Positions 5,727 through 21,322 of a stretch of DNA of 64,000 bases are shown one piece after another. Source of the stretch: Acidobacteriaceae bacterium (GTDB lineage Bacteria; Acidobacteriota; Terriglobia; Bryobacterales; Bryobacteraceae); NCBI GenBank assembly GCA_019240405.1, contig JAFAYL010000020.1, positions 158,865-222,864 on the forward strand. The letters run 5' to 3'. Both the position numbers and the translations under genes were made by a program. Positions within the stretch are counted from its first letter, which is position 1. Each line of letters starts with the position of its first letter. Under the pieces are notes generated by a model that searched no databases, was not told the origin of the DNA, and worked only from the letters and a program-made list of their open reading frames with translations.

Positions 5727-6785
5727 CTAGAGATTCCGCTTCAAAAATGAGCAGATCTCGTAACCGGTAATGTACTTGAACGGAAACTCGCCCATGGTGT
5801 AGTGGCCGCACGGCAGAACCGTGACATCGTGATCCCAGTTCTGCCTGCGCGCGCCCTTAATGACTTCGCGCGAGAGATGCACGGGGAACGTAGTGTCGTA
5901 GCGAGTGTAGATGAATTTGGAGCGTTTGTTTCTGGCGTCGAATAACTTCCAATAACTGGGCGGGCTGATACAGAGCCAGAGCTTGCGAAGGGTTTCTAAG
6001 TCGACCGCCTCTTCAAGACTCTCGCGTATGTGGCGGGTGGACAAGCCCTCCCAGACCGGGTCCGCGAAATACGTAGAGCAGTGATTAAATACATTGACCC
6101 GAATGCGGGGGTCATGGACGCTCGCGAGAAAGGCGTAGCAGGACCCGAGACTGGTTCCCACAACGCCGAGGCGATCGAAACCTTGCTGTGCGAGCCAATC
6201 GAAGCACGCTCGGGTGTCAATCACCGCTTGGCGGGTCGCGTCGATAGTGCGGCAGATATTCGATGAGACGGCATAATCGGCGCGGGTCAAGCCCGCGGGC
6301 GTGCGCGAATCGTGATAAGGCGGACTCAGGCGTAACGTCGAGATCCCGAGGCGCTGCAGACCCGTGCAGAGGCTGTTGTGTTGAGGGAGCTTCGCGTTCC
6401 AGTGCGGTATCACTACTACGGCTCTACGGCCGGGGCTGCGAGCGGGAAACCAGAGCGCACGGACGGTGTTGTTTTCCGGATACGGCGTGCGAATGGGCGA
6501 AGCGAATTCGAGCCATTCATTCTTCAGATCGAAGCGGGCAGGCGTTTCATAGCTGAAGAAATTCGCGCTATTTGCGATGGCGCACTCGTTTAGGCGAATG
6601 ATGTATTCGACCGGCTCGGAGCCGTTAAGCGGCTTGTGTCGCGCACACGGCCAATCGCGAGTCCATTCAAGGCCATAATCGAACGGGCGGACGATGCGGT
6701 CCGTGGCGCGAGAGCAAAGCTCATTTTCCCAGCGATACATCCAGGTCCGGTAGCGGTGCGCCATCGGCTTCAACAGAAACTTCAT
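5727..6785 (-). CDS. Alpha/beta-hydrolase fold protein
   Basis: This 352-residue protein has the alpha/beta-hydrolase layout: an oxyanion-region strand VVVIPHWNAKLPQHN, a nucleophile elbow GTSLGSCYA (GxSxG type) in the middle, and a C-terminal His in LPCGHYTMGEFPF. It resembles uncharacterised ABHD18-like hydrolases. There is no signal peptide; the N-terminus is basic and aromatic. The substrate is unknown. It lies directly upstream of the TolC-like gene on the same strand and is divergent from the Ppx/GppA gene (about 70 bp between starts, enough for two promoters). Confidence 0.75.
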   Translation of the reverse strand: MKFLLKPMAHRYRTWMYRWENELCSRATDRIVRPFDYGLEWTRDWPCARHKPLNGSEPVEYIIRLNECAIANSANFFSYETPARFDLKNEWLEFASPIRTPYPENNTVRALWFPARSPGRRAVVVIPHWNAKLPQHNSLCTGLQRLGISTLRLSPPYHDSRTPAGLTRADYAVSSNICRTIDATRQAVIDTRACFDWLAQQGFDRLGVVGTSLGSCYAFLASVHDPRIRVNVFNHCSTYFADPVWEGLSTRHIRESLEEAVDLETLRKLWLCISPPSYWKLFDARNKRSKFIYTRYDTTFPVHLSREVIKGARRQNWDHDVTVLPCGHYTMGEFPFKYITGYEICSFLKRNL

Positions 6786-6855
6786 GAGCGCAGTTCACAT
6801 GTGAGTTGCACGAATTTAGTTTATCGAGGGCCCCTGCACTGCTATAAAGGCGGAT

Positions 6856-8412
6856 ATGCCTCGTTACGCGGCGGTTGACATCGGCAGCAACTCTGTCCGG
6901 ATGATGGCTGCCGACGTTACGGGGACCGGGACCGAGATACTCGCGGAAGACCGGCAGGTCACAAGGCTCGGGGACAGCGTATTTCGATCGGGCAGGATCA
7001 GCAGAGACGCCCTGGATTTCCTTTGCGTCGTTCTTACGAGGATGGCGGACGCGTATCGAAGCCTGGATGTGATTGGAGTACGCGCGGTGGCGACAAGCGC
7101 CGTGCGTGATGCGAGCAACAGGCAGCAATTCCTGACTCGAACTGCTGCGGCGCTGGGAACCAATGTCGAGATTATTTCGGGCGCGGAAGAAGCCCGGCTG
7201 ATTCACTTGGGTGTGAACGCGCGGTGGCCGCGGCCGAAGGACGAACGGTTTCTCATTGTTGATATCGGCGGCGGCAGCGGCGAGTTGATCGTGAGCGAAG
7301 GCGGCGAGATGGTAGACGCTACTTCGAAGCCGCTTGGCGCGGTGCGATTGACAGAGGTTTTCCTAAAGACCGATCCGCCCCAACCGGAGGAGCTGCATCG
7401 CATGGAGGCTTACATCGAGGAAAAGCTGAGCTCCTTTTACGGGCGGCACGGCGCGGAACACTTCAGCCGCACCATCGCGACCTCAGCGACCGCGGCGGCG
7501 ATTGTGAGCGCGGCGAATCGAGTTCCTCGCGCGAAGCGCGACGAGGCAGACCGGATGCGGGCGGGGGTCAATCAGATCCGCCAGCTCTACAGTTTGCTGA
7601 TCGAAACCGATCTCACCAGGCGCCGGAAAATTCCCGGTATTGGACCGCGGCGCGCCGAAATCATCATCGCGGGCGTCGCTGCATTTCTCCGAGCGCTAGA
7701 GCTTTTCCACCAGCGGGCGTTGTATTACTGTGCGGCGGGTGTACGCGATGGGATCATTGCAGACCTGGCGGCACGCGGGGTCGGGCGTGAGCTCTCGCAG
7801 CTTTCTCGCGAACAACGAGCGGTAGTGGAAGGAATGGCGAAGCGGTATGGTGTCGCGTTGAAGCATGCCAAGCATGTAGCGTTTCTGGGGCACCGTCTTT
7901 TTGAGCTGTTGCGGCCCCTACATCAACTAGCGCCGGCAGCAGGCAAGTTATTGGAGGCCGCTTCGTATTTGCATGACATCGGGCATTTCGTTAGCGATAC
8001 AGGACACCACAAGCACTCCGCATATCTAGTTGCGAATTCGGGGATGCCTGGATTTACGAATCGGGAACGATTGATCATCGCGACACTTTGCCGGTTTCAC
8101 AGAAAGTCGGTGCCGGATCCGGCTCATCCACAGCTCCAAAATTTGGATGCGGATTCGAAGCGCACAGTGGCTAATCTTGTCCCTCTTCTGCGCATCGCTG
8201 ATTCGCTCGATCGCGGGCATGAACAAAAGGTGCGGGACATCAGCATCGGGTCGCGAAATGGAGCGGTAAACGTCCTCGTGCAGGATGAAGGGGACGCGGA
8301 TCTCGAAATTTGGGCGGCCAACGAAACCGCCAAAGCGTTTGCGAGCGTCTATCCGGCGCAAATATCGATTCGACGCCGGCGATTGCAGAAGTCAAGAGCC
8401 GCGGAAGCGTGA
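6856..8412 (+). CDS. Ppx/GppA exopolyphosphatase/guanosine pentaphosphatase family protein with C-terminal HD domain
   Basis: This 518-residue phosphatase of the ASKHA (actin-like) fold is expected to hydrolyse inorganic polyphosphate and/or pppGpp. The N-terminal phosphate-1 motif DIGSNSVRM is at residues 8-16 and the phosphate-2 loop DIGGGSGELIVS at about 136-147. A linker GIGPRRAEII follows, then a C-terminal HD-type domain with HDIGHF near residue 373, as in longer Ppx proteins. Which substrate dominates cannot be told. It is the last host gene before the CRISPR-Cas locus: its stop is about 56 bp from the decayed terminal repeat. Confidence 0.88.
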   Translation: MPRYAAVDIGSNSVRMMAADVTGTGTEILAEDRQVTRLGDSVFRSGRISRDALDFLCVVLTRMADAYRSLDVIGVRAVATSAVRDASNRQQFLTRTAAALGTNVEIISGAEEARLIHLGVNARWPRPKDERFLIVDIGGGSGELIVSEGGEMVDATSKPLGAVRLTEVFLKTDPPQPEELHRMEAYIEEKLSSFYGRHGAEHFSRTIATSATAAAIVSAANRVPRAKRDEADRMRAGVNQIRQLYSLLIETDLTRRRKIPGIGPRRAEIIIAGVAAFLRALELFHQRALYYCAAGVRDGIIADLAARGVGRELSQLSREQRAVVEGMAKRYGVALKHAKHVAFLGHRLFELLRPLHQLAPAAGKLLEAASYLHDIGHFVSDTGHHKHSAYLVANSGMPGFTNRERLIIATLCRFHRKSVPDPAHPQLQNLDADSKRTVANLVPLLRIADSLDRGHEQKVRDISIGSRNGAVNVLVQDEGDADLEIWAANETAKAFASVYPAQISIRRRRLQKSRAAEA

Positions 8413-8468
8413 TCGGCACAAGCTTCACCGAATTCACTGGTGAGTCCCGCATCCGAGGATCGTTTTCA

Positions 8469-8505
8469 CAAACATCCGCTTCGAAAATCGTGATTACTTT
8501 GTAAC
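8469..8505 (-). repeat. Degenerate terminal CRISPR repeat (trailer end)
   Basis: The last 14 bases, GATTACTTTGTAAC (8492-8505), are identical to the repeat. The palindromic half is decayed, with only scattered matches. A 36-nt spacer (8506-8541) separates it from the first intact repeat, the same size as the other spacers. This marks the oldest, leader-distal end of the array. Because the hairpin is lost, the terminal spacer may not be processed normally. Confidence 0.85.
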
Positions 8506-9964
8506 TGGAGTGGCGCTTAATACCAGTGGTACGCTGAGTAAATTTCAGTCCCCTTCGCGAAGGGGATTACTTTGTAACTCGTGATTGAACCATGCCGAAC
8601 TACCAGAGTCATAATTTCAGTCCCCTTCGCGAAGGGGATTACTTTGTAACGTCAGATCCAGCTGGCACAGGCGCAAGCAGCTGCGAATTTCAGTCCCCTT
8701 CGCGAAGGGGATTACTTTGTAACTCACGCATATATTCGGTCAGCCGGTCTACGCCAAGCATTTCAGTCCCCTTCGCGAAGGGGATTACTTTGTAACTCAG
8801 GCATGGGAACACCGCGCATCGCTTGCAATCCTGATTTCAGTCCCCTTCGCGAAGGGGATTACTTTGTAACGGGGTTTGGCTTCGCGAAACCGGGCGGCTA
8901 CCCGTTATTTCAGTCCCCTTCGCGAAGGGGATTACTTTGTAACCCGTTCGCGGCGGTAGACGAGCGCTGTTTGAGAATTTATTTCAGTCCCCTTCGCGAA
9001 GGGGATTACTTTGTAACTCTTTGCATTACTCCCGTCGTTTAATTGTTTGTAGATTTCAGTCCCCTTCGCGAAGGGGATTACTTTGTAACACGTAAATTTG
9101 CCTGACGTGGCGCAATTGAAATGGAGATTTCAGTCCCCTTCGCGAAGGGGATTACTTTGTAACTTCCGAAAAAAGAAATCGACTGATCCACGTTGGCCGC
9201 ATTTCAGTCCCCTTCGCGAAGGGGATTACTTTGTAACAGCGACATTATCGCTAGTGAGCAGAGTTATGGCATAATTTCAGTCCCCTTCGCGAAGGGGATT
9301 ACTTTGTAACAAGGCTGCGAAGGTGCTAGGCGCTACATCCTTCGAATTTCAGTCCCCTTCGCGAAGGGGATTACTTTGTAACGATTCTTCTTAGCCAGCT
9401 TGATAGCAGCGTTCAATATTTCAGTCCCCTTCGCGAAGGGGATTACTTTGTAACGCCTTGCGAGGCGCTGCGAAACATCGGTCAAGTACATTTCAGTCCC
9501 CTTCGCGAAGGGGATTACTTTGTAACTATATCGAACTCTGGCTAGACTCAGGAAGAACTGCGATTTCAGTCCCCTTCGCGAAGGGGATTACTTTGTAACG
9601 GTATAAGGTGATGATAAGCGACATTATCGTGAGCATTTCAGTCCCCTTCGCGAAGGGGATTACTTTGTAACAAACAGAGCTTCGCCGGGATGCCAGGAGA
9701 TTTGAAATTTCAGTCCCCTTCGCGAAGGGGATTACTTTGTAACGCCAATATCGCCCACGAACGCACGTAGTAAATTGATCATTTCAGTCCCCTTCGCGAA
9801 GGGGATTACTTTGTAACAACCGGGGCAGCTACGAGAGCGTGGGGCGCAATAACATTTCAGTCCCCTTCGCGAAGGGGATTACTTTGTAACCACATGACAC
9901 AAACGAACATCACAGAAGATCATAAGCATTTCAGTCCCCTTCGCGAAGGGGATTACTTTGTAAC
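8469..9964 (-). CRISPR. Type I-D CRISPR array: 20 identical 37-nt repeats, 20 spacers, one decayed terminal repeat
   Basis: Perfect repeats start at 8542, 8614, 8687, 8760, 8834, 8907, 8981, 9053, 9127, 9201, 9274, 9346, 9418, 9490, 9563, 9635, 9707, 9781, 9854 and 9928. Spacers are 35-37 nt. Each repeat contains a perfect 16-bp palindrome (CCCCTTCGCGAAGGGG) that would form the Cas6 hairpin. Read on the minus strand the repeat ends GACTGAAAT, the usual form of the 8-nt crRNA 5' handle, so transcription runs right to left. That agrees with the decayed repeat at the low-coordinate end and with cas1-cas2-cas4 lying just upstream on the minus strand. No repeat variants were seen. The spacers find no obvious match inside this window. 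Confidence 0.99.
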
Positions 9965-10068: not shown

Positions 10069-10644
10069 TCACCAAACGTCCGCGCAGTAGTTTGCAAATT
10101 CACACTCGGTACACCGCGCCCGAACCGGTGTCGCGGCTGGCATCCATTCGGTCCGCTCCAGTGCGCGTATACCCTCCACCGCAGCACGCACCGCATCCCG
10201 CAATTTCACCGTGATCTCCACAGCAAACACCCGGTTATCTGGAATGCGGTAGAGGAAAGCCCGTCTCGCGGGCAGTCCATAAGCCTTCTCCGCAAGCAGG
10301 CTATATCCCGCTAATTGGGTCCTCTGATTTTCTCCCGGCTCTCCCGAGGTCAGTTTAAAATCCACCACTGCAATCTCTTCTGCGGCCTCCAGCACCAGAT
10401 CCGCCTTCCCGGACAGGCTCAGAATCTCGTCAGACAACCACACATTGAACCGCCGCCGCGCATTCTCAAATCCATATTCCTTCAAACACCGGCGCATCTC
10501 CAAGCCCTCGATCAGCTCCTGCGCCGCAATCGCCTCCCTCATCTTAAAGGTCGGCTTTCCAACCGCTGGCATCACCCGGTGATAATACACAATGCGCGGG
10601 CAATAGACCCACTGCTTCAGATCAGTCACCGCAATCAGATCCAT
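10069..10644 (-). CDS. cas4: CRISPR-associated exonuclease Cas4
   Basis: This 191-residue RecB-like nuclease trims prespacers and selects their PAM end before Cas1-Cas2 integration. Four cysteines for a 4Fe-4S cluster are present: C15 (WVYCPR) and C178, C181 and C187 near the C-terminus. The nuclease core shows GKADLVLE and VVDFKLTSGE (the Asp and Asp-x-Lys metal and catalytic residues) followed by QLAGYSLLAE (the QhxxY-type motif). Its ATG abuts the cas2 stop codon, so cas1-cas2-cas4 form one operon that runs into the array leader. Confidence 0.95.
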   Translation of the reverse strand: MDLIAVTDLKQWVYCPRIVYYHRVMPAVGKPTFKMREAIAAQELIEGLEMRRCLKEYGFENARRRFNVWLSDEILSLSGKADLVLEAAEEIAVVDFKLTSGEPGENQRTQLAGYSLLAEKAYGLPARRAFLYRIPDNRVFAVEITVKLRDAVRAAVEGIRALERTEWMPAATPVRARCTECEFANYCADVW

Positions 10645-11031
10645 TCAGTCCTCGGGAGATACAATCCGCAACCGCGGAGCCGCGCGCTCCGCCCGTTCCT
10701 TCAACTCATCCGCATCCTGCCGGTACTGATCCAGTTCCCACATCTCTTTCAAATCCTGCTCGCACACGGGAATGATTCGAATGCGCCCCGACTCCTTACC
10801 TACCTCGCGCTGCAGCCGAAGCGCAAGCTCCTGACGCCGGTTGCGGTTCAGCTTGCCGAAAAACGCGCTGAACTGAATGCGCTCCAGCCCATAGTTCAAG
10901 CAAATTTCAGAGACGCGCGTGCGCAACCGGTCGTCCTCGATGTCGTAGATCAAAACGAGCGATACCTCGGGGCTGCCCCTACCAACCGGAAGCGGCTTGA
11001 GAACTCCCGTATACCTGTTCTTCCGCGCCAA
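10645..11031 (-). CDS. cas2: CRISPR-associated endonuclease Cas2
   Basis: The product is the ferredoxin-fold dimeric core of the spacer-integration complex. Of its 128 residues, about 20 extend the N-terminus before the usual first strand VLIYDIEDD, whose Asp at position 30 corresponds to the conserved Cas2 Asp. The stretch NYGLERIQFSAFFGKL matches the second-strand/loop signature. The C-terminal charged tail after about residue 100 is longer than in minimal Cas2. It sits between cas1 (about 21 bp upstream) and cas4 (immediately adjacent). Confidence 0.95.
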   Translation of the reverse strand: MARKNRYTGVLKPLPVGRGSPEVSLVLIYDIEDDRLRTRVSEICLNYGLERIQFSAFFGKLNRNRRQELALRLQREVGKESGRIRIIPVCEQDLKEMWELDQYRQDADELKERAERAAPRLRIVSPED

Positions 11032-11052: not shown

Positions 11053-12237
11053 TCACCATTTGAACGAGAAGGGCCGGTAAGAACGAAGGCCTCGCACCGT
11101 GCTCGCCGCAAGCCGCGCCTGCATTTGAATGATCGAGCGCACCTGGTGCTGCTTGCCGCGATGCTGCTCGACCGCAACTAACCGGCGGAACACCCGCTCC
11201 GCAACGGCTTCACGCGATTCGCCATCCAGCAACCCTTTCTGCAAATTGAGCTGGCCGCCTTTGTTGAGCCATGACAAGATGGCGCGATCCACGACGGGTT
11301 GGCGAAATTCCTCTACTAAATCCAGAACGAGCGACGGTTTACCGCTGCGGTCGACGTGCAGGAAGCCGGCGAAAGGCTCGAGCCCGGCATTCATCACCGC
11401 GCCCCATACGTGCGAGGTCAGAATGCCATAGCCGTAATTCAACGCAGCATTGACCGCGTCGGTTGCGCCTTGATGATTGCGGCCCGAGAAGCCGAGGTCC
11501 CCAGGCAGCAAGTTTCCGATCTGCTGCCAGTAGAGGCGGCCGCCGGTGCCTTCGAGGCCCATCAATTCAGCACGCAAGTCATCGGGCGTTGTGCCGCAGG
11601 TTCCGAGCGCGCTACGACGCAGCCTCCGAATCGAAGCAGCAGCGCTTTCGAGTGCGTGCCTCTTTTCGCCGTTGCGATTTTTCGCAAAATAGAGCAGTAG
11701 CTTTTCCTGATTGTGGAGTTTGCCGGCAACGATCCAACGGCACACATCGCCGCCGGTGTTGTTATGGAAGGCGGCAAACTGCGCCCGGCGCGTTTCGACG
11801 GTTGCGGTGAGCATGGGAGAGGTGATCAAGGCGAAGGGCTTGCCGCTGGAGGAAAGGCAAGCGATTCGGATGCCGCGCTCGCAGAGTTCTTCGATGAGAT
11901 CGGACGAGAAGCTCACGCCTCGCGAGCCGATGATGATCTCTTGTAGGCGCATGAGCGGGACTTGCGCGCAAACCGATTTGCCTTGTTTGACGATGACGCG
12001 CTCGCTCTTTTTGCCGATGAAGAGGCCGAAGCCGGAAACGAAGAGCTGCGAGCCGTTTTCGGTGGCGAGGAGGATGGCGCGGTCGTCGCCGGGGAGGATG
12101 GTGTCATCGATGGGCGGGAGCGGCAGCGCGAGCTGTTCGGGGAGGAAGTCGAGCGCGCCGGTGATCCAGTTGTATTGGGCGGGCGTGGGAGGCTTGCGGA
12201 GGGAATGACCGAAAGAATCATACGCGAACTCAGGCAC
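11053..12237 (-). CDS. cas1: CRISPR-associated integrase Cas1
   Basis: This metal-dependent integrase catalyses insertion of new spacers at the leader end. It has 394 residues, with about 50-60 residues before the usual N-terminal beta domain. The catalytic triad is visible as E229 (MGLEGTGG), H294 (FLHVDRSG) and D306 (LDLVEEFR). Translation starts at GTG 12235-12237, with a purine-rich GGAGGGG about 12 nt upstream. The promoter proposed at 12279-12307 is shared back-to-back with that of the effector operon. Confidence 0.96.
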   Translation of the reverse strand: MPEFAYDSFGHSLRKPPTPAQYNWITGALDFLPEQLALPLPPIDDTILPGDDRAILLATENGSQLFVSGFGLFIGKKSERVIVKQGKSVCAQVPLMRLQEIIIGSRGVSFSSDLIEELCERGIRIACLSSSGKPFALITSPMLTATVETRRAQFAAFHNNTGGDVCRWIVAGKLHNQEKLLLYFAKNRNGEKRHALESAAASIRRLRRSALGTCGTTPDDLRAELMGLEGTGGRLYWQQIGNLLPGDLGFSGRNHQGATDAVNAALNYGYGILTSHVWGAVMNAGLEPFAGFLHVDRSGKPSLVLDLVEEFRQPVVDRAILSWLNKGGQLNLQKGLLDGESREAVAERVFRRLVAVEQHRGKQHQVRSIIQMQARLAASTVRGLRSYRPFSFKW

Positions 12238-12278: not shown

Positions 12279-12307
12279 ATTGTACCTATATTTTTGTGAC
12301 TTGACAA
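12279..12307 (-). promoter_or_regulatory. Predicted sigma70-type promoter of cas1-cas2-cas4
   Basis: On the minus strand, TTGTCA (12302-12307) and TACAAT (12279-12284) are separated by exactly 17 bp (12285-12301). Transcription would begin near 12272, giving a leader of about 35 nt before the cas1 GTG. Its -35 box overlaps the -35 box of the plus-strand cas10d promoter. Confidence 0.7.
12288..12303 (+). promoter_or_regulatory. Predicted target site (protospacer) of the crRNA-like guide in the cas10d leader
   Basis: These 16 bp match 12461-12476, the bases directly after the solitary repeat handle, with one mismatch at guide position 6. The site fills the -35/-10 spacer of the cas1 promoter and overlaps the first bases of the -35 of the cas10d promoter, so a bound effector complex would cover both. 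The bases 5' of the site are CCT (12285-12287). That differs from the GTH PAM known for cyanobacterial I-D systems, so the PAM of this system needs to be known to judge it. Confidence 0.65.
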
Positions 12308-12330
12308 GGCGCCTGATGGGGGACTACACT
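12301..12330 (+). promoter_or_regulatory. Predicted sigma70-type promoter of the cas10d operon
   Basis: A consensus TTGACA (12301-12306) is followed after 18 bp by TACACT (12325-12330). Transcription would start near 12337, leaving a leader of about 150 nt before the cas10d ATG. The CRISPR-repeat-like element at 12421-12460 would be part of this leader RNA. Confidence 0.65.
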
Positions 12331-12420: not shown

Positions 12421-12480
12421 TTACTAAGACCAAGTTCCCCTTCGCGAAGGGGACTGAAAGATATTCTTGTGACTTGGAGG
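12421..12480 (+). ncRNA. Solitary CRISPR-repeat-like unit plus guide: candidate crRNA-like cas autoregulatory RNA
   Basis: Bases 12436-12459 are identical to the array repeat read in its transcribed orientation, including the full 16-bp palindrome and the handle ACTGAAA. The handle then ends in G instead of T. Upstream, TTAC and AAG of the repeat's 5' half are recognisable with a short insertion (12421-12435). Cas6 cleavage at the hairpin base would expose a guide beginning at 12461. Its first 16 nt match the promoter region 12288-12303 with one mismatch at position 6. Known parallels are CreA of CreTA modules and CasR RNAs, which use short guide matches to repress without cutting. Transcription, processing and repression are inferred. 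Confidence 0.65.
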
Positions 12481-12500
12481 TTCCCCGTGATGAAGGGGAT
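12481..12500 (+). promoter_or_regulatory. Second repeat-like hairpin enclosing the cas10d start codon
   Basis: A CCCC (12483-12486) and a GGGG (12495-12498), extended by U12482-A12499, form a 5-bp stem with an 8-nt loop holding the AUG at 12490. Aligned to the array repeat it keeps TCCCC and AAGGGGA but has a changed loop and lacks one base of the handle. It may be a degenerate second repeat bounding the guide RNA, a translation-control hairpin, or both. The Shine-Dalgarno GGAGG (12476-12480) lies just before it. Confidence 0.45.
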
Positions 12501-15141
12501 GTCTCGCGATCCCGAAGAAATTCTCAAACGTTCCGATAAATGGATGCGATCGCAAGCTTGGCATAAAAAGCTTGCGAAGAGCGCGACCGGCCAATCGCTT
12601 CTTGAACATACACTTATTGAGCTGGATGTATTTCTTTCGCTTGAGCCAATTCTCGCAAATCCTAAGACCTTCGCACTTAGCGACACTGAACGCTCTATCG
12701 TCCTCGGGGCTTTGCTCTGTCATGATATCGGGAAAGCAAGCGAGTTATGGCAGCGTTACGTTCGGGGTGAAGCGGATGAATACGTTCCTCACATAGACAA
12801 AAACTTATTGCGCTCAATTGCACCCGAGGTGTGCGCCGTCATTGGAGCGGACTCAGTTGCAACGGACGTTGAGCGTACGGTTGAACTTTGCGCCCGATAT
12901 CACCACTCCCGACCGGAACGCGATGATGCGACCATTCTCGAAGCTCTTTTAGATGGTACGCCTTCGTTCTTGCCGCTTGCGCACATAGTAATGGACATCG
13001 ATCGGCTTTGCTCCGCGCAAACGCCCCAATCAGCCGTTTCCCATATCCGCGCCTCGGATCTCGGCAAGCATATCTCCGCCGAATGGCATCAGCTCAGCGT
13101 TCGAGGAGTATCGTCGACCTTCTTCCATAAGGCCGTCCAGCAAGCTTTCGAGGCCGCTGGGTGGCGCCCTTTGATCTATTTCGGGCATGCGACAGTATAT
13201 TTTGCTGACCGTGCTGAGGACTGCGTGGCACCTAATATCGAATCGATCCGGAAGAATCTCGAAAGGGTTATCGCGGATACGTTCACCCGTGAAGTGTCGT
13301 CCTTGATTGTCGGGAATCCGACGGCAAATATTCTTCCTAAGCCTGATCTCGTGTCATGGAATGAGACGCGAACTTACCTAGAGCAAGCTGGCCGCAAGAT
13401 GAGCCCGTCGAGTTTTGCCAAGAAGAGACGAGAGGCGCGGGTCAAAGTCATCGAGAAATATCTGGATACGCTGGGAGCCTCGGTGCTCATTGATGACGAT
13501 ACGCTCGAACGGCAATCACAGCGTATCTCGCATGCCCAACCAGAAATGGTCGTATTCAAGCTGTTCAAAGCACTAACGGATACGAGAAAAGTTCCAGAAC
13601 TTGGTGATCAAGCTGCGCAGATCGCGGCAGAATTGTATGAAAAAGTTTTCGGAAAAGGCACTTGGCAAAAACTACAATCGACGTCGACGTTAATGCCAGC
13701 CAACGACATGGCCGCGACGGTTGATTCCTACTGGGATCTCGACGCTGGTGCCATCGGGCGTGCACCCGGGACGAAAATCGAGACGCTTCCGGACAAGGAG
13801 CGCATGTCAGGATTGATCACAGTATTAGATCGCATCATCGAGCATGTCGTGAAGGCTGTGGGAGCGGTTTCACCTCGAAACGCGCTGGCGGCCAGCATGG
13901 CTAGCGCGTTTCTACGGGACCTAGTCTACCCTTCAGAGACAAGCTCCGACCCGCGCATTATCGCCGGGGTGCAGGTTGAACATTACAGTCAATCGAAACC
14001 AATCGCAGGCAAAGACAAAGACTCAGGTGCATTCACGTGTCCAATCTGCAACTGCGCATTTGAAAGCGGACGCAAAGCGTCTGCGGATTTCATAGATAAC
14101 CCCCAGTCGCACACGAATCGCGGTGTCTCGCATGGCGCGTTCGGTTACGTCGTAGTCTGCAAATCCTGCTATTACGAACGCTTGCTGAGGCAAGTCCTCA
14201 TGGAGACGAGGCCAGCCGAGATCATTACCTTGCTACCGCCGTGGAACATTGGACCACGAAATGGCGACCTCATTGTCAAAAGAGTACATGCAATGGTCGA
14301 TCAGGCTTCAGCAGAAATGCGCGGCGAGACCGGCGATGTTACTTCGGGATTTTCATTCAGTCTGACCGAGCACATTGCTCGGCGAATGGAAGAGAAACTC
14401 GCGGGCGATGCCGGAACTATTAACCTTATAAGTCTGTTCCGGTATCGTGTAGGCAGCGAAACCGCCAGGAAACGAAAACGCGAACTGGAATTGCGACTTC
14501 AGGAGGAATACGGCGGCGACCTCGCCGCACTGAATGCTATGTGCGGAACAAGGTATTCCTCATGGGGTGCCGTCCTTGACGCAGTTTCGTCCCCGGGTCC
14601 GCTTCCGGATGATCTTCATGAAATAAGGCGTGAAATTCTGAGACTCGACCCGAATATGGGACTCGCTTGCGAGACCCCTAATCTGGTATTCATTCCACTT
14701 ACTTACGAAATAGGATCTTCGGATGAATCCGATGCCAACAAAGCGCTGCGGCGGCTATTTGCAGCTCTCCTAATTCATACAGTGTTTGGAGCAACGGTCG
14801 CAATTCACTCAGAGCCTTCTGACATCGATCCCTCCAATGCGGTGGGAGCGGCCTGGGTGCCTCCAGTCCCGGCAGTTCGTAACGTGATCGGGACGGATTG
14901 GATCTCAGCCGATTCGGCTGAACTCTGGCTTGAACGCATTGGTGCTGCAGCCCGCTTGGCACAAGCTACAGGGTATCCATCAAGATCAGCAATGTACCAG
15001 ACATTCATCACCGACCCCGCTGAAAAGGTAATGCAGCGCATTGAGAGCCAGAGAGGAATCGCCTCGCCAAATGAAGCTGAGCTTATTCGAAAGCTGCCGT
15101 TTTTCAGAACTTCAACCTTATACATGGAGGCCCAAGCTTGA
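12490..15141 (+). CDS. cas10d: Type I-D CRISPR large subunit Cas10d/Csc3 with HD nuclease domain
   Basis: This is the large subunit of the I-D effector, carrying the HD nuclease that in other type I systems belongs to Cas3. The 883-residue protein has an N-terminal HD domain, with HD at residues 78-79 (LCHDIGKA) and a second His pair in ARYHHSRPE. A mid-protein zinc finger of type CPIC...CKSC is at C517, C520, C557 and C560. The frame is open to a GTG at 12469, but ATG 12490 has GGAGG 9 nt upstream (an ATG at 12499 is the alternative). It leads an operon with overlapping genes. It is on the short side for Cas10d, which matters for the next gene. Confidence 0.9.
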   Translation: MKGMSRDPEEILKRSDKWMRSQAWHKKLAKSATGQSLLEHTLIELDVFLSLEPILANPKTFALSDTERSIVLGALLCHDIGKASELWQRYVRGEADEYVPHIDKNLLRSIAPEVCAVIGADSVATDVERTVELCARYHHSRPERDDATILEALLDGTPSFLPLAHIVMDIDRLCSAQTPQSAVSHIRASDLGKHISAEWHQLSVRGVSSTFFHKAVQQAFEAAGWRPLIYFGHATVYFADRAEDCVAPNIESIRKNLERVIADTFTREVSSLIVGNPTANILPKPDLVSWNETRTYLEQAGRKMSPSSFAKKRREARVKVIEKYLDTLGASVLIDDDTLERQSQRISHAQPEMVVFKLFKALTDTRKVPELGDQAAQIAAELYEKVFGKGTWQKLQSTSTLMPANDMAATVDSYWDLDAGAIGRAPGTKIETLPDKERMSGLITVLDRIIEHVVKAVGAVSPRNALAASMASAFLRDLVYPSETSSDPRIIAGVQVEHYSQSKPIAGKDKDSGAFTCPICNCAFESGRKASADFIDNPQSHTNRGVSHGAFGYVVVCKSCYYERLLRQVLMETRPAEIITLLPPWNIGPRNGDLIVKRVHAMVDQASAEMRGETGDVTSGFSFSLTEHIARRMEEKLAGDAGTINLISLFRYRVGSETARKRKRELELRLQEEYGGDLAALNAMCGTRYSSWGAVLDAVSSPGPLPDDLHEIRREILRLDPNMGLACETPNLVFIPLTYEIGSSDESDANKALRRLFAALLIHTVFGATVAIHSEPSDIDPSNAVGAAWVPPVPAVRNVIGTDWISADSAELWLERIGAAARLAQATGYPSRSAMYQTFITDPAEKVMQRIESQRGIASPNEAELIRKLPFFRTSTLYMEAQA

Positions 15142-15779
15142 GAAAGCCTATAACCGTCGAAGTTACTTCCTTCGACCTTAATAATGCTGAGCCGCAGATT
15201 GACGCGGCGGTTAAAGCCTTTGCTGAGTATGCAGAGCAAGTGCCGGCCGCAAAAAGCACACGCTCAAAATACGGACTCCTTGGCCCATCGGGAAAGGCGA
15301 TAACGGAACTCAAGGCAGGCAGATACCACCGCGACTCCTTGATTGGCTACACTCTACGAACGCACGAAAGCGCCCGTACTCGTCGCTGGGTCCCTGAGCC
15401 GCAACCAGAAGCAATCAGCGCACTTGAAAGAGCAGTGGATCAGATCCTCGAGGTGTTAAAGAGCGCTCCAAAGCCGTACCATTCGGAGATCTTGGACCGA
15501 TTACATTACGGCCTATATTACCGGCTGCGACGGAAACAGATTGAGCGTAAAGAGGCCCTGCGTCAGAAATGGGTTCAATTTCTCGAAAAACGCTACAAGA
15601 CGAAAGAGGCCATAGGAGAGGCTTGGAAACGCGAGATGCCAGAGCTCGACGCTGCCATTCTTCCAAAGAAACAGGCCACGGCCACCAGACGACAGGGACG
15701 CTCCGCAATCGAGCAAAAGGATATTGAGGAGTTTTATGCATCGCTCACTGAGCCATTTACGGATGAGGACAACGAATGA
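15138..15779 (+). CDS. Unrecognised protein in the type I-D operon; possible separate small subunit (Cas11d-like)
   Basis: The 213-residue protein starts at TTG 15138, overlapping the cas10d stop (TTGA), with GGAGG 7 nt upstream. Its own stop overlaps the csc2 ATG. No family was recognised. The first third looks mixed alpha/beta, and the rest is strongly charged and probably helical (for example RKQIERKEALRQKWVQFLEK), ending in an acidic tail. In known I-D systems the small subunit Cas11d is made by internal translation of the cas10d 3' end. Here cas10d is short and this helical protein follows directly, so a free-standing small subunit is a fair hypothesis, not a demonstrated function. Confidence 0.5.
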   Translation: MRKPITVEVTSFDLNNAEPQIDAAVKAFAEYAEQVPAAKSTRSKYGLLGPSGKAITELKAGRYHRDSLIGYTLRTHESARTRRWVPEPQPEAISALERAVDQILEVLKSAPKPYHSEILDRLHYGLYYRLRRKQIERKEALRQKWVQFLEKRYKTKEAIGEAWKREMPELDAAILPKKQATATRRQGRSAIEQKDIEEFYASLTEPFTDEDNE

Positions 15780-16687
15780 ACACCATTAATGATTACTTGG
15801 TTGTAAAACCTCGACCGCTCCTTAGCGCTGAGGCCATTCAGTTGCTGTTGTTACGTGAGGTTCTGGATTACACTGTCCTTCGCACTGAAGATAGCCGGGA
15901 AATTAACTCAGTGGACACACCGCTGTCAATAAAAGACTCCAAAACCGTTAAGCGAGTGGCGTTTCTCGGGTCCAAACAGAAAGCTGCAGAGTCGCGCGAA
16001 CTCGAATCCCTGCTTAGATCGGCCTGCTCGGCAGCAAACTTCGACGCGAAGGAGTGCTGGCTAAAGGACAATCTCTGCCTGGAGTGTCCCCGGTGCGCGC
16101 TATTTGGAGCAACCGCGCTGAGCGAGGCGCCAAATATCCGGCACCGGATCGAGTACTCGACGGCGTTCTCACTCTTAACCTTCGATTTACTAACTGAAGA
16201 GATTACATTTAATGCTGTTGATGAGAAGACTCAAACTACGGGACAGGCGCTGGGCGTACGACACGTCGTGCGCCCAGCGTCACTGTTTGCGTCTATTGTC
16301 ACCCTGCGAAGCGTTACTCGATCGGAGCTGATCCTTGCCGTCAAAACACTGCTTTCATCAAAAAGCTATGGTGGCGAGACCAGAATCGGCGGCGACTGCC
16401 GTAATACGGTTATCGGGATAGTAGCGGGATGGGAGGAAATTATCACACCGCTAGAACTCACACTGGAGCTTTACGAACGTCGCACAAATATCGACCGAGC
16501 AATCATCGCGAGCTTCCTAGAGCGCGAATACAAACCCAAAGCGGGCACTCCGGCAAAAGTGAAGGTATTGTCTGATTCGGAAATCGAATCAGTGATCAGC
16601 GAATGCGCCAACACTAATATCGACAACGCATTTCTTGCAGACGCCTACAAAGCCGTAAAGGAATACCGAGGCCAGCAGGGCGGGTAA
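15776..16687 (+). CDS. csc2: Type I-D backbone subunit Csc2 (Cas7d)
   Basis: This RAMP-fold protein polymerises along the crRNA spacer to form the effector backbone. It has 303 residues, typical for Csc2. Seen in the sequence are the opening NDYLVVKPRPLLSAEAIQLL, a Cys pair region LCLECPRCALFGA about residues 98-112, and the glycine-containing segment GGETRIGGDCRNTVIGIVAGW about 198-218. ATG 15776 overlaps the preceding stop by 4 nt (ATGA). The csc1 ATG follows 2 nt after its stop. Confidence 0.9.
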   Translation: MNTINDYLVVKPRPLLSAEAIQLLLLREVLDYTVLRTEDSREINSVDTPLSIKDSKTVKRVAFLGSKQKAAESRELESLLRSACSAANFDAKECWLKDNLCLECPRCALFGATALSEAPNIRHRIEYSTAFSLLTFDLLTEEITFNAVDEKTQTTGQALGVRHVVRPASLFASIVTLRSVTRSELILAVKTLLSSKSYGGETRIGGDCRNTVIGIVAGWEEIITPLELTLELYERRTNIDRAIIASFLEREYKPKAGTPAKVKVLSDSEIESVISECANTNIDNAFLADAYKAVKEYRGQQGG

Positions 16688-16689
16688 AC

Positions 16690-17454
16690 ATGCCCGAAGC
16701 TCTTGACCTGAGCGCCGCAGGAGTCCGTATTTACGGGGGGCAATTCTTCCATCATGATTATCTGTGGTTTTCCTCGTTCGAGGTTTCCAAAGTCACGAGA
16801 ACTGCACCGATAGTTCATAACTACGCGCTTTCGTATGCCACCTCGCGGTATGAGTATGCGATCTACTACGGCTCAAGGCCGTCCTACGACGCTGATCTAC
16901 GGGCAATGCCGGTGTACACGACGCCAGCCAGACCGGGCACGTCACATAGAATCGGCTGGACGCGCCTAACCCAAAATGCGATTGATACGAGAACCCAGCG
17001 GACTGAGGGACCTCGGGGCATAAACACCCCGTCCATCGGCTGGCGAATCGTGCTCAATCCATGTTGGGAAACGGGTCACGAAGATCAGGGTTTCCATTTC
17101 TACGCCTTCGTCAGGAATGGTTACTCCTTGCCCACGGTTATACGGTTAGGGAAAAAAGGCTGCCCCGTTCGGCTACGCTGGGCCGCGCTTGCAGCCTCAC
17201 GAGCAATGCATGTTGCGGGGCCGGTACAACCCACGCACGCTCTGAACCCTCTCGACGTCCAGGGTCAAATCCTAAGCTATGAACCCATATCGATACCACC
17301 CCATTTGGTATTTCGTCAGGCGGAAATCGCAGATGATTGGTTTGTATTCGAGGGGAAACACTGCATCCATGTTCCTAGGAGATTTACTCCCGCCGGACCT
17401 TTACCCCTGAGTCCGGGCAACACAGGTCAACGTAGAAGACGAAGCCGCCGATGA
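16690..17454 (+). CDS. csc1: Type I-D subunit Csc1 (Cas5d)
   Basis: This Cas5-type RAMP protein caps the crRNA 5' handle and takes part in PAM recognition. Its 254 residues fit Csc1. The N-terminal VRIYGGQFFHHDYLWFSSFE and the block IVHNYALSYAT match the family pattern. The C-terminus is unusually basic, ending in an Arg-rich tail (GQRRRRSRR) that could bind nucleic acid. The stop overlaps the cas3' ATG (ATGA), indicating coupled translation. Confidence 0.88.
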   Translation: MPEALDLSAAGVRIYGGQFFHHDYLWFSSFEVSKVTRTAPIVHNYALSYATSRYEYAIYYGSRPSYDADLRAMPVYTTPARPGTSHRIGWTRLTQNAIDTRTQRTEGPRGINTPSIGWRIVLNPCWETGHEDQGFHFYAFVRNGYSLPTVIRLGKKGCPVRLRWAALAASRAMHVAGPVQPTHALNPLDVQGQILSYEPISIPPHLVFRQAEIADDWFVFEGKHCIHVPRRFTPAGPLPLSPGNTGQRRRRSRR

Positions 17455-19424
17455 TAAGCCGGGTGCTAGGGCTCGAAATGCCCTTGGTCGAACATCCCGA
17501 CTCGCGCAGGCCGCTGTATCCGCATCAGGCCGCAATGTTAGAGGCCTGGAACGCTCATTCTTCGTTGTTGTTAGCTTCCAAAACTGGTTCCGGGAAGACT
17601 CGTGCAGCGATGTTTCCCGTTCTCTGGCATCGTGAGTATGCGATCGCTGTATACCCAACAAATGAGCTATTGCGGGACCAAGTACGTGCGGTCGAGAAGA
17701 TTGCACTCGACGAGGGGATCAGGGCTGAAATACATAGGCCCGATAAGCCGCATTCGCCTCATGCCGATCACGTACTAATTCCCATCGACGCTCCGCTTTT
17801 GGATCTGTGGCAGCGCGGGCGAACCCGCTCGAGGGGAGAGGCTCTTCGAAATCTTCTATCGCGAGAACGCCCACGCATAATCTTCACGAATCCAGACATT
17901 CTGTTCAACATCCTCTCAGCTCAGTACCACCTCGATGCCTTGGCACCCCTTGACATATACAACACGATAATCTTCGATGAGTTTCATCTTTATCAGAATG
18001 TGGAGCTCGCACATGCATTGATGATGGTTTATCTCGCGCGCGGCCTGGGTTTCTTTAGGAGAGTGGTCCTTCTCACGGCCACTCCCCACCCGGAAGTGAG
18101 AGATCTCTTGGACAAAATCATCCAGCCGACCGAAATTTCCAGTAAGCACGGCTCGGACGATACGAGGACTCGCACGGCTGTTCACGATGTCTACATCTCA
18201 CCAATTGTTGCTGCAGAAGATCCCGTCGACCAAATAACCTCGCGAATTCTCAAAGCGCTTCCGGATCTTAAGCGCCTGCGCGAGAAGAATCCTGACGATT
18301 CATATATTCCAGCCGTGGCGATCGTTAACTCAGTTCTCGATGCAATTCGGGTCGAGGACGAAATCGTCGCGCGAGACTTCGATAGAAATCTGATCGCCGT
18401 TATTCGGGGCCTTTCAAATCGCGCTCTGCGCGAACGCGCTGGAAAGCTGATCGCTGTCGGGACCTCTGCAATCGAGGTCGGCGTCGACTTCGACTGCGAC
18501 CTGCTATTCTTCGAGGCTTTTGAGGCGGCCTCGTTTCTACAGCGGTTTGGTCGTGCAGGCCGGCACAGAGAGTCCCATGCACTCATGTTTGTTCCCCCAA
18601 ACGCTTTTGAGGCGATGTCTGCATGCCCGGAATCAATGGACAGATCTTCTTTCGAACGTCTGATTCACATCTGTTATCCATTAGCCGAGGCTCGGCCTTG
18701 GTTTGCCGCGACAGAATACGGTTTGCTCGCAGCGGCTTCTATTGCAGAACGACTTTTTCGAACCGTCCAGAAAGACCATAAGGCGGGGAAGCAGTATCTC
18801 TCGCGCTTTCAGCAGCGATTAGACAATATTTTCAGTGCTTACGCCGCTGCGCTCGGATGCGATCAGCAACTGTTGAGTCGTGTTGAGGCTAAGGTAAATT
18901 ATTCTCGCAACGGAAATCCCAAAATGTCTTGGTATCGTGCGTATCTGCAGTTGGAGCGTTTTCGAACGTCGATGCCATCTGTAGAGATTCACGATTGGCT
19001 AGAGCAAGCCAGAAGGGGCAATTGGAATCTTGGTACGTACGAGATTGACCTTAGTGCGCTACTCAGGCGTGGTAGAAATATCCGGCGAAATACAAAAGCT
19101 GGGCTTACAATCACCGGGGTTGGCTCTACTCGACGGGTCCATGCCGGGGAAAGCGTCGCACATTTGAGCCGGGGTGTACCGCTGCGAACCTCTGTGTATC
19201 CGATACACCTACTTCAGGACGGGCTGGACACTCCAATTTCCGGATGGCTGTCGGACACCGATCATGTATTCACCGTCGTTCCTCGTGCCGATGTTGATGC
19301 TTTGATCGATTGGCGATTGACATGCTTCGAGGCCGGCTCAAACGTCCTGGCTTTCGATGGCGCTGCCTTGCTGCTAATCGAAATCTACAGACGTCGGCAG
19401 GAACTTAGTACGCGCGTGCTCTAA
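17451..19424 (+). CDS. cas3: Type I-D helicase Cas3' (no HD domain)
   Basis: This superfamily 2 DNA helicase is recruited to the R-loop to unwind the target. The 657-residue protein has a Walker A motif ASKTGSGKT ending near residue 50, a Walker B/motif II DEFH at 176-179, motif III (LLTATPHPE) and the motif VI-like RFGRAGRH. No HD nuclease domain is fused, as expected for I-D, where the HD domain is on Cas10d. It is the last gene of the plus-strand operon. Its stop is 1 bp from the convergent cas6 stop. Confidence 0.92.
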   Translation: MISRVLGLEMPLVEHPDSRRPLYPHQAAMLEAWNAHSSLLLASKTGSGKTRAAMFPVLWHREYAIAVYPTNELLRDQVRAVEKIALDEGIRAEIHRPDKPHSPHADHVLIPIDAPLLDLWQRGRTRSRGEALRNLLSRERPRIIFTNPDILFNILSAQYHLDALAPLDIYNTIIFDEFHLYQNVELAHALMMVYLARGLGFFRRVVLLTATPHPEVRDLLDKIIQPTEISSKHGSDDTRTRTAVHDVYISPIVAAEDPVDQITSRILKALPDLKRLREKNPDDSYIPAVAIVNSVLDAIRVEDEIVARDFDRNLIAVIRGLSNRALRERAGKLIAVGTSAIEVGVDFDCDLLFFEAFEAASFLQRFGRAGRHRESHALMFVPPNAFEAMSACPESMDRSSFERLIHICYPLAEARPWFAATEYGLLAAASIAERLFRTVQKDHKAGKQYLSRFQQRLDNIFSAYAAALGCDQQLLSRVEAKVNYSRNGNPKMSWYRAYLQLERFRTSMPSVEIHDWLEQARRGNWNLGTYEIDLSALLRRGRNIRRNTKAGLTITGVGSTRRVHAGESVAHLSRGVPLRTSVYPIHLLQDGLDTPISGWLSDTDHVFTVVPRADVDALIDWRLTCFEAGSNVLAFDGAALLLIEIYRRRQELSTRVL

Positions 19425-19425
19425 C

Positions 19426-20373
19426 CTAAAGCTGCAGCTTCATCTCCCCCTTCCCCCATACCGTCTGCCTTCCCACTCCCGTCCATTGCGCGGCTCGGAG
19501 ATATGGCACAAATTCCGTCAACTCGCCTTCGTACTCGGCTTCGCCGATGAAGCCGCCGATCGGGTGCACCTGTCCTGTCCGGCTGCTGCGTCGGCGCACA
19601 TCCACCTGCTCGATATCGCAGCGCACCATGCGCACACGCGTGGCTCGCTCGCCGAATGCGCGAAAGTCAATCTCGAGCGGTCCCGAATCATAAAGCTCGC
19701 GCAGCGTGCTCAATCGATCGCGAATGCGAGCAATAAGCACTCCGAACTCGGGGCGCTCGGCCAAATGCTGACCTGCTTTCAGCTCGGTCGGAGTCACGAA
19801 TCGCACGCGCACTCGCTCGATCTGCTCGACCTGCCCTCCGTGGGGCGCTTCCAAATTCAGCACTAGAGGCTCCGCACAATTCTGCAACAGAAACGTCTTG
19901 CCATCATAGATCCTTGTCGCCGGCTCGCCATTTTCATCACGCGCGAAAACCTCGGTTAACTCGGCACGCCCGCGGCCCGGGCCTAAACCTTCGCGTGATA
20001 ACTGCGCGAACGCGAGGACAAGATATGCGATCGCGGGACTGCGCATATCGAACAAGTTGAGATCGAAGAAAAAATTCTCGCCGGCGAGTACTGTGCGCCC
20101 GTCCAAATGCGTTGCCCGAAAAACAAACGGTCGCGGCCAGTCAACGAGCCCGCTTGGTCCCTGCGCAGTGGCTCGGGGCTCGAACATGCGCGCGTAGGGA
20201 CATTCCGCGCGCAAATCGCAAGACACCGCGCCCGGGCAATGCTGGACGCACGCAATCCGGCGAAAGATCATGCCGAAAGCGCCGCGCAGCAGATTCGCCG
20301 GCTTGCCGGGCGGAAAGTGAACCGGCTGCCGCGCGACGAACGAAAATCTCAAGGCGTAGAGCCGGAATTGCAA
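19426..20373 (-). CDS. cas6: CRISPR pre-crRNA endoribonuclease Cas6
   Basis: This RAMP-fold RNase cuts pre-crRNA at the 3' base of the repeat hairpin, leaving the 8-nt handle. It has 315 residues. The C-terminal glycine-rich RNA-binding loop of Cas6 is visible in GGFIGEAEYEG and GVGRQTVWGKGEM. A Cys cluster in the first third (CVQHC, CDLRAEC) may bind a metal. Unlike the effector genes it is on the minus strand and is GC-rich. By its activity it would also process the repeat-like unit at 12421-12460. It is probably co-transcribed with the gene starting at 21231. Confidence 0.9.
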   Translation of the reverse strand: MQFRLYALRFSFVARQPVHFPPGKPANLLRGAFGMIFRRIACVQHCPGAVSCDLRAECPYARMFEPRATAQGPSGLVDWPRPFVFRATHLDGRTVLAGENFFFDLNLFDMRSPAIAYLVLAFAQLSREGLGPGRGRAELTEVFARDENGEPATRIYDGKTFLLQNCAEPLVLNLEAPHGGQVEQIERVRVRFVTPTELKAGQHLAERPEFGVLIARIRDRLSTLRELYDSGPLEIDFRAFGERATRVRMVRCDIEQVDVRRRSSRTGQVHPIGGFIGEAEYEGELTEFVPYLRAAQWTGVGRQTVWGKGEMKLQL

Positions 20374-21231: not shown

Positions 21232-21322
21232 CTGGGTTTTCGACCTCGATTCTAGCAGAGGCGGGGTGGGGTGCTTGGCCCGGCTAGCACGCCTTCCGCT
21301 GTTACACTTGAAGCACACGAAA

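What the first reader, a model, noticed from the sequence alone, without database searches (positions are those of the whole stretch)
12421..12480. crRNA-like guide in the cas10d leader matches the shared cas promoter: candidate type I-D CasR-type autoregulation
Seen: a lone repeat unit 24 nt identical to the array repeat (palindrome and ACTGAAA handle) lies between cas1 and cas10d. The bases right after the handle (12461-12476) match 12288-12303 at 15 of 16 positions, and the only mismatch is guide position 6, which type I effectors flip out. The match begins exactly where a guide begins, not a base earlier, and it falls on the overlapping promoters of both cas operons. Known: CreA and CasR RNAs use repeat-like units with short guides to repress promoters through Cas complexes. 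Inferred: the I-D effector represses its own operon and cas1-cas2-cas4, releasing them when effector or Cas6 is low or blocked. I am not aware of such a circuit in type I-D, nor of one embedded in the leader of the operon it controls.
Basis: partly seen in the sequence, partly recalled or inferred. Interest (0 to 1): 0.95.

Follow-up and report, generated by a model that had tools for sequence, protein, structure and literature searches.

The report
Type I-D CRISPR self-silencing guide RNA
A lone CRISPR repeat in front of this bacterium's CRISPR effector genes is followed by 16 bases, 15 of which match the predicted shared promoter region of its own cas genes, and the same repeat-plus-matching-site pairing sits before the cas genes of dozens of other type I-D systems, so it likely encodes a small guide RNA that would let the CRISPR complex turn its own genes down.

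Summary
A repeat outside the array (12436-12460) is followed by a guide (12461-12476) matching 12288-12303 at 15 of 16 bases, with the mismatch at guide position 6. The target overlaps predicted divergent cas1 and cas10d promoters. Six of 23 loci of the window's Cas10d subfamily carry such a pair, flanked by CC[ACT], perfect at positions 1-5 and mismatched at position 6 (11 of 3450 control pseudo-guides match as well). Of 40 cyanobacterial type I-D loci, 26 carry a pair flanked by GT[CT], the known I-D PAM. Over 33 distinct pairs, identity is 94-100% at positions 1-5, 27% at positions 6, 12 and 18, and 12-36% from position 20 on. That is the imprint of a type I effector flipping out every sixth base. 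I read this as a type I-D version of the known CreR autorepression RNAs. The window is the only one of 37 pairs whose creR lies inside the leader of the operon it targets, with a degenerate second repeat around the cas10d start codon. Expression and repression are untested.

The parts
8542..9964 (-). CRISPR array, 20 repeats GTTACAAAGTAATCCCCTTCGCGAAGGGGACTGAAAT read on the minus strand
10069..10644 (-). cas4
   Evidence: PADLOC Cas4 1.8e-37
10645..11031 (-). cas2
   Evidence: PADLOC Cas2 8e-26
11053..12237 (-). cas1
   Evidence: PADLOC Cas1 3.7e-76
12279..12307 (-). predicted cas1-cas2-cas4 promoter, -35 TTGTCA 12307-12302, -10 TACAAT 12284-12279
   Evidence: consensus scan only
12285..12287 (+). 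CCT flanking the target on the non-target strand, putative PAM
   Evidence: CC[ACT] in the same place in five other loci
12288..12303 (+). target (protospacer-like) site, 15/16 identical to the guide
12301..12330 (+). predicted cas10d operon promoter, TTGACA 12301-12306, TACACT 12325-12330
   Evidence: consensus scan only
12436..12460 (+). R1, lone repeat unit: palindrome 12436-12453 and handle ACTGAAAG 12453-12460
12461..12476 (+). guide of the predicted creR RNA
12475..12479 (+). Shine-Dalgarno-like GGAGG before cas10d, overlapping the guide end
   Evidence: sequence, inference
12482..12499 (+). psiR2, degenerate second repeat TCCCCGTGATGAAGGGGA, 14/18 to the repeat palindrome, cas10d start codon in its loop
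   Evidence: 0.3 such matches expected per 64 kb in shuffles; two others of 14-15/18 elsewhere in the window
12490..15141 (+). cas10d (ATG 12490; GTG 12487 also possible)
   Evidence: PADLOC PDLC01192 6.2e-272
15138..15779 (+). cas11d as a separate gene
   Evidence: PADLOC PDLC01194 9.3e-48
15776..16687 (+). cas7d/csc2
   Evidence: PADLOC 5.8e-37
16690..17454 (+). cas5d/csc1
   Evidence: PADLOC 1.2e-23
17451..19424 (+). cas3' helicase
   Evidence: PADLOC Cas3d 4.1e-42
19426..20373 (-). cas6
   Evidence: PADLOC 1.4e-77, Pfam PF10040

Best explanation
A lone repeat and 15-of-16 matching guide in the cas10d leader likely form a crRNA-like RNA (a type I-D creR) that would direct the cell's own I-D effector to the predicted shared cas promoter and repress it. 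Steps. (1) Shown: repeat, handle, guide, target and CCT flank exist, and pairs of the same design were found upstream of the cas genes in 35 other I-D loci. (2) Inferred: the leader RNA is cut by Cas6 3' of the R1 hairpin, leaving the 8-nt handle ACUGAAAG and the guide. (3) Inferred: Cas5d/Cas7d/Cas10d/Cas11d assemble on it and bind 12288-12303 beside CCT. Pairing over about 16 nt, broken at the flipped-out position 6, holds the complex without the full R-loop that licenses Cas3' cutting. (4) Inferred: because the site spans the shared -35 region of both predicted promoters, cas1-cas2-cas4 and cas10d-cas11d-cas7d-cas5d-cas3' are both held down. (5) Inferred from the CreR precedent: array crRNAs compete for the effector, so more crRNA, less Cas6 or a blocked effector would lift repression. 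(6) Peculiar to the window: creR lies downstream of the promoter it targets, on the cas10d coding strand, so its supply would fall when the operon is shut.
For: Uniqueness and chance. Subfamily: all 8 motifs of the form [AG]GN[AG]CTGAAA within 1.2 kb upstream of cas10d in 23 loci were tested; 6 (window, L024, L037, L173, L174, L175) have a CC[ACT]-flanked target of at least 12/16 within 400 nt with positions 1-5 perfect. With the same flank rule 39 of 3450 random pseudo-guides reach 12/16, 11 of them with positions 1-5 perfect, 6 reach 13/16 and none 15/16. L173, L174 and L175 were fetched after CCT and position 6 had been noted for the first three; a scan with no flank rule listed 15 motif hits with a neighbour of 12/16 or more in 7 stretches, and the 4 with CC[ACT] are these three and L037 again. 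Cyanobacteria: 23 of 40 loci have a pair of at least 12/16 with a GT[ACT] flank; L099, L103 and L111 fail that script's arm filter but fit, making 26. Controls: of 652 array spacers used as pseudo-guides 7 reach 12/16 and 1 reaches 13/16. Position profile of 33 distinct pairs: 100, 100, 100, 94, 97, 27, 91, 100, 94, 73, 88, 27, 88, 94, 88, 70, 42, 27% at positions 1 to 18. Guides fall into 17 families and targets follow their own guide: mean 13.3/16 for own pairs, 4.4/16 for 958 swaps between guides differing at 6 or more positions. A review states that I-D Cascade flips out every sixth base, allowing mismatches there, and gives the PAM GTN/GTH (PMC10212523, passages). I-D effector genes and Cas6 present.
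Against: No RNA or expression data. Promoters in the window are consensus matches; in the relatives my promoter scan gave no consistent placement of target and -35. CCT is not the PAM known for I-D; support for CC[ACT] in this subfamily is only the six pairs themselves, and one of them (L024) has a better-scoring site with another flank (13/16, GAT). In L037, L173, L174 and L175 no array was detected in the fetched stretch, so their repeat is recognised by motif alone. 15 of the 23 subfamily loci show no handle-like motif upstream of cas10d (some contigs hold under 1.2 kb there), and L034's motif has no target. The one Cas10d relative found in the same family (G1639, interrupted cas10d) shows no such element. 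No orthologue close enough to test guide-target change within the window's own lineage could be fetched. Four cyanobacterial loci have a lone repeat without a match of 12/16 (best 8 to 11; two of them keep the seed), ten have none. Synechocystis 6803, Stanieria 7437, Pseudanabaena galeata, Gloeothece 7822 (lone repeat, no match) and Halorussus pelagicus gave no pair, and 4 of about 309 array spacers in the ten named records do reach 12/16 next to GT.
Confidence: 0.84

Rival explanations
1. The two copies of ATATTYTTGTGACTTG are a pair of operator sites for a protein regulator (for instance a WYL or other DNA-binding protein), and the nearby repeat is incidental.
For: Direct repeats in promoters are common operators (general knowledge), and WYL regulators accompany I-D loci (annotated in several of the named plasmids).
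Against: The identity starts at the first base after the handle and ends at 16. The same boundary, with dips at positions 6, 12 and 18, holds for 33 distinct pairs with 17 guide families, which a protein operator would not give. No regulator was recognised among the ten cas-locus proteins scanned, though that library may lack WYL models.
Confidence: 0.06
2. R1 and its guide are a relic: a stray repeat with a self-derived spacer, or a decayed mini-array, without regulatory effect today.
For: The window has a single example; the upstream half of R1 is diverged and psiR2 is degenerate; many relatives lack the element.
Against: The match is retained in the window, and recurs in distant loci with the seed kept and the flip-out positions drifting, as expected under selection on the pairing. 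Between L024 and L029 the mini-CRISPR is nearly invariant, more so than the rest of the intergenic region.
Confidence: 0.06
3. The leader hairpins act on RNA only: Cas6 (or Cas6 with Cas5d/Cas7d) binds R1/psiR2 in the cas10d leader and blocks translation or cuts the message, with no DNA targeting.
For: The guide ends in the Shine-Dalgarno-like GGAGG and psiR2 encloses the start codon; R1 and psiR2 can also pair with each other.
Against: It does not explain the 15/16 match to promoter DNA, nor the other pairs, in which the creR does not lie between target and cas10d (36 of 37).
Confidence: 0.04

Closest known systems
CreR, cas-regulating crRNA-like RNAs (Liu et al., known here only through passages of the reviews PMC13131331, PMC12737573, PMC12948488; the original paper was not read)
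   Same: Mini-CRISPR-derived RNA with partial complementarity to a cas promoter that makes the Cas effector repress its own genes; not coupled to a toxin.
   Different: The reviews name types I-B, I-E and V-A (PMC13131331) or type I and V-A (PMC12737573); type I-D is not named for CreR in the passages seen. Here the effector is I-D with a CC[ACT] flank, and the creR sits inside the leader of the operon it targets.
CreA of CreTA toxin-antitoxin pairs (PMC9458426, passages)
   Same: One or two ectopic repeats around a short guide partly complementary to a promoter, used by type I Cascade for repression.
   Different: CreA represses a toxic RNA; here the only genomic site within one mismatch of the pattern is between cas1 and cas10d.
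SpyCas9 autorepression (mentioned in PMC13131331, passage)
   Same: A Cas effector represses its own expression and anti-CRISPRs relieve it.
   Different: Type II effector, unrelated machinery.
Racr, viral solitary repeat units (PMC10651486, passages)
   Same: A solitary repeat outside arrays.
   Different: Virus-encoded inhibitors; here the repeat is in the host cas locus and carries a matching guide.
WYL regulator Sll7009 of Synechocystis I-D (PMC10212523, section 10 read)
   Same: A negative regulator of a type I-D system.
   Different: A protein, not an RNA guide.

Membership tests
CreR (crRNA-like autorepressor of cas genes) | Repeat-like unit(s) outside the array, near the cas promoter | tested here: met
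   R1 12436-12460, only extra-array copy found in the assembly; degenerate psiR2 12482-12499
CreR (crRNA-like autorepressor of cas genes) | Guide with limited complementarity to a cas promoter, starting right after the 5' handle | tested here: met
   15/16 from 12461, ending at 16; the promoters are predicted only
CreR (crRNA-like autorepressor of cas genes) | Target flanked by a PAM of the resident effector | tested here: inconclusive
   CCT here and CC[ACT] in five relatives, but this effector's PAM is not known independently; array searches against phages and plasmids gave no protospacer
CreR (crRNA-like autorepressor of cas genes) | RNA made and processed by Cas6, loaded in the effector | not testable with these tools
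   no RNA data
CreR (crRNA-like autorepressor of cas genes) | Effector-dependent repression of cas genes, relieved by crRNA competition or anti-CRISPRs | not testable with these tools
   needs reporter assays
Type I-D CRISPR-Cas | Cas10d, Cas7d/Csc2, Cas5d/Csc1, Cas3' and Cas6 together | tested here: met
Type I-D CRISPR-Cas | GTN/GTH PAM as in Synechocystis and Microcystis (known property, not strictly defining) | tested here: not met
   the flank of this target is CCT, and CC[ACT] in five loci of the same Cas10d subfamily; the cyanobacterial pairs show GTC/GTT
CreTA | Guide aimed at the promoter of a toxin RNA | tested here: not met
   the only genomic site within one mismatch of the pattern lies between cas1 and cas10d; no toxin RNA was searched for

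The most novel reading that the evidence does not exclude
The cas10d message is itself the creR precursor and the switch has two layers. Cas6 cuts at R1, so the effector's own handle becomes the 5' end of the mRNA; Cas5d/Cas7d assembling on handle and guide cover the Shine-Dalgarno (12475-12479), and a second cut at psiR2 frees the guide but severs the message inside its first codons. Each guide RNA then costs one cas10d mRNA, and the freed complex returns to shut the promoter that made it: one transcript is either effector message or effector guide. More widely, I-D systems across several phyla, with two PAM classes (GTN and CCN), would share RNA-guided autorepression.
Probability: 0.25. Interest if true: 0.88.

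Novelty: new variant of a known kind. Interest (0 to 1): 0.8.

Why it matters
It would extend RNA-guided Cas autorepression to type I-D, the type I/III hybrid, and suggest that it is common there. The 33 pairs give an evolutionary read-out of effector-target contacts: a 5-nt core, then dips every sixth base, fading after about 19. That would let PAMs and seeds be read from genomes without phage data, as the CC[ACT] class here. It offers a route by which I-D systems could sense loss or inhibition of their own effector. It is directly testable in cultured strains that carry a pair, such as Picosynechococcus PCC 7002 and PCC 7117, and I-D is used as a genome-editing tool (PMC10212523, passage) whose expression control matters.

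Tried and rejected
Phage and plasmid records were searched with the array for protospacers that would give the PAM: none. Viral contigs with a Cas10d relative: none. Plasmids with the window's Cas10d: none; with a cyanobacterial Cas10d: 14 records, 10 opened (of the four not opened three are further Synechocystis records). L024 has a second possible target of 13/16 with flank GAT at 9926, inside a small open frame; the CCT site (12/16) was preferred because flank and position-6 mismatch agree with the other loci, which is a choice. L029 keeps the mini-CRISPR but its target is cut after the seed by a deletion relative to L024; it was not counted as a pair. The loose scan of the subfamily loci listed 30 motif hits with a neighbour of 12/16 or more, many of them array spacers or far from cas10d; CC[ACT] flanks appear in four (window, L024, L037, and one array spacer of L030). 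A motif in L026/L041 with a 14/16 neighbour and repeated motifs in L042 were set aside as lying away from cas10d. L039 and L040 lack the cas10d 5' end and were left out; L041/L042 are the contig of L026, L177/L178 those of L036/L037. The first cyanobacterial scan exempted positions 6 and 12; therefore all counts come from later scans with plain identity. Of the five named-strain pairs, PCC 7117 is the same plasmid as L125 and collapses as a duplicate. The 40 cyanobacterial regions are 40 of the 41 best-scoring places (G576, a partial match, was skipped).

Full report
1. What was checked. The repeat is the only copy outside the array in the assembly at up to 3 mismatches. Allowing C or T at guide position 6, only guide and target match without error, no site has one mismatch and three have two. 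A local match of 15/16 is rare: 6 of 15,120 pseudo-guides of the window, sampled at every 8th position with the array region left out; the 20 array spacers reach at most 12/16 in the same region. The match begins at the first base after the handle and stops at base 16.

2. Surroundings. cas1-cas2-cas4 run leftward; cas10d, cas11d, cas7d, cas5d and cas3' run rightward; cas6 is convergent. Two predicted sigma-70 promoters face away from each other and share the -35 region, TTGACA/TTGTCA at 12301-12307; the target lies on it. Downstream of the guide the letters TCCCCGTGATGAAGGGGA (12482-12499) match the repeat palindrome at 14 of 18. I read this as a degenerate second repeat, as in creA genes (one or two repeat-like units, PMC9458426, passages). 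Shuffles give 0.3 such matches per 64 kb, though two others of 14-15/18 occur in the window. The cas10d start codon is in its loop and a Shine-Dalgarno-like GGAGG overlaps the end of the guide. R1 and psiR2 can form separate hairpins (-10.1 and -9.4 kcal/mol) or pair with each other (-28.4).

3. The window's own subfamily. Cas10d relatives are distant: the best-scoring one is 48% identical. A scan of genome contigs gave 19 loci, and five whole-genome searches gave a few more. In 23 loci I tested every motif [AG]GN[AG]CTGAAA within 1.2 kb upstream of cas10d: eight motifs. Six have a target of at least 12/16 within 400 nt, flanked by CC[ACT], perfect at positions 1-5 and mismatched at position 6: window CCT 15/16, L024 CCT 12/16, L037 CCT 12/16, L173 CCA 13/16, L174 CCC 13/16, L175 CCT 13/16. 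L029 keeps the seed only (9/16) and L034 has none; the other 15 loci show no motif, some of them on contigs that end close to cas10d. Of 3450 random pseudo-guides from the same regions and with the same flank rule 39 reach 12/16 and 11 of these have perfect positions 1-5. CCT and position 6 were noted from window, L024 and L037 before L173-L175 were fetched; these were then found by a scan without a flank rule, in which they and L037 are the only 4 of 15 listed hits with CC[ACT]. In L037 and L173-L175 no array was detected in the stretch held, so the repeat there rests on the motif.

4. Cyanobacteria. Of 386 genomes 62 match the classical Cas10d family. I fetched 40 of the 41 best-scoring places and looked upstream of cas10d. 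Within 3.2 kb and with an arm filter 27 of 40 have lone repeats (37 repeat units, second units included), and 23 have a target of at least 12/16 with a GT[ACT] flank (GTC or GTT in each) within 400 nt. Three more (L099, L103, L111; all GTC) fail the filter but fit, giving 26 of 40. Four have a lone repeat without such a match (L102, L113, L117, L132) and ten have none. Array spacers as pseudo-guides: 7 of 652 reach 12/16 and 1 reaches 13/16. In annotated records the element lies between cas3 and cas10d (Anabaena sp. 90, PCC 7117) or between the WYL gene and cas3 (PCC 7002); nine sampled loci read by open frames look like the former, their frames not searched against a library. Several have two target sites. 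Among ten named plasmid records five have a pair: Anabaena sp. 90 (GTC), Picosynechococcus PCC 7117 (GTC, the same plasmid as L125), PCC 7002 (GTG), Dolichospermum UHCC 0315A (GTC, 16/16) and Ca. Chlorohelix allophototropha (GTT; Chloroflexota). Five do not; about 309 array spacers of the ten records served as a further control, 4 reaching 12/16 next to GT.

5. The imprint. The 37 pairs collapse to 33 distinct ones with 17 guide families. Identity by position: 1-5, 94-100%; 6, 27%; 7-9, 91-100%; 10-11, 73-88%; 12, 27%; 13-15, 88-94%; 16, 70%; 17, 42%; 18, 27%; 19, 55%; 20-28, 12-36%. Choosing pairs by a plain count raises all counted positions alike and cannot make dips at 6 and 12, and position 18 was not counted. 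A review says I-D Cascade flips out every sixth base, allowing mismatches there, and that the type I seed excludes position 6 (PMC10212523, passages). Targets follow their own guide: 13.3/16 on average against 4.4/16 for 958 swaps between guides that differ at 6 or more positions, 4 of 958 reaching 12. Relatedness of the cyanobacterial loci means the pairs are not fully independent; the 17 families are the safer count.

6. Geometry. In 36 of 37 pairs the target lies between the lone repeat and the cas genes, with the repeat on the opposite strand in 34. The window is the only pair with the repeat between target and cas10d on the coding strand. The consensus scan reported no promoter-like site on the + strand between 12330 and the repeat, so the RNA most likely comes from the cas10d transcript. 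My promoter scan of the relatives was inconsistent and is not used as evidence.

7. What is known. Reviews describe CreR as a crRNA-like RNA by which type I-B, I-E and V-A effectors repress their own genes, sensing crRNA supply and anti-CRISPRs (PMC13131331, PMC12737573, PMC12948488; passages). The primary paper was not found in the library and was not read, so it may list type I-D among predictions. Searches with CreR, CreT/CreA, autorepression or autoregulation, crRNA-like, mini-CRISPR, cas promoter, type I-D, Cas10d and cyanobacteria in various pairings listed nothing on such a circuit in I-D; at most 20 papers of each were shown. The expression section of a review of I-D names protein regulators only: WYL proteins such as Sll7009 in cyanobacteria, and Csa3 in Sulfolobus (PMC10212523, section 10).

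8. Verdict. Function (RNA production, repression, release) is inferred from design and from the pattern of conservation, not measured. The embedded layout, psiR2 over the start codon and the CC[ACT] flank make the window a variant of a known kind.

Noticed in passing
L024:9666-9760 and L029:9769-9851: A two-repeat mini-CRISPR is nearly identical between a Pelotomaculum and a Bacillota MAG while much of the flanking intergenic DNA differs; a short open frame of about 36 codons, read by eye and membrane-like, lies between it and cas10d in both.
   Followed up: partly
L107, L110, L118, L120, L126, L131, L133 upstream of the cas10d operon: A second GT[CT]-flanked site matches the same guide seed, in tandem or on the other strand, which could mean cooperative sites for the effector.
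   Followed up: partly
window 8492-8505: A truncated repeat (GATTACTTTGTAAC, no palindrome) closes the array at its cas-distal end.
   Followed up: no
window 15138-15779: Cas11d is a separate gene here, whereas the review describes it as an internal start in cas10d for classical I-D.
   Followed up: no
window 20392-21363 (minus): A 323-aa open frame next to cas6 has no PADLOC or Pfam hit; function unknown.
   Followed up: partly
L191 (G1639:C443), 6697-8524: The only Cas10d relative found in the same family is interrupted: two matching pieces, the middle of the profile missing; no lone repeat upstream, only an ACTGAAAA without hairpin arms (seen by eye, not tested).
   Followed up: partly
L037:9225-9290: By eye, the guide lies in the loop of a long imperfect inverted repeat followed by a T-rich run, which could serve as a terminator for the creR RNA.
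   Followed up: no
L042:5567-6896: Several copies of a block ACTGAAAT-GATC(A/G)T(A/T)TGGGG spaced about 150-300 nt apart on the contig of an I-D locus.
   Followed up: no
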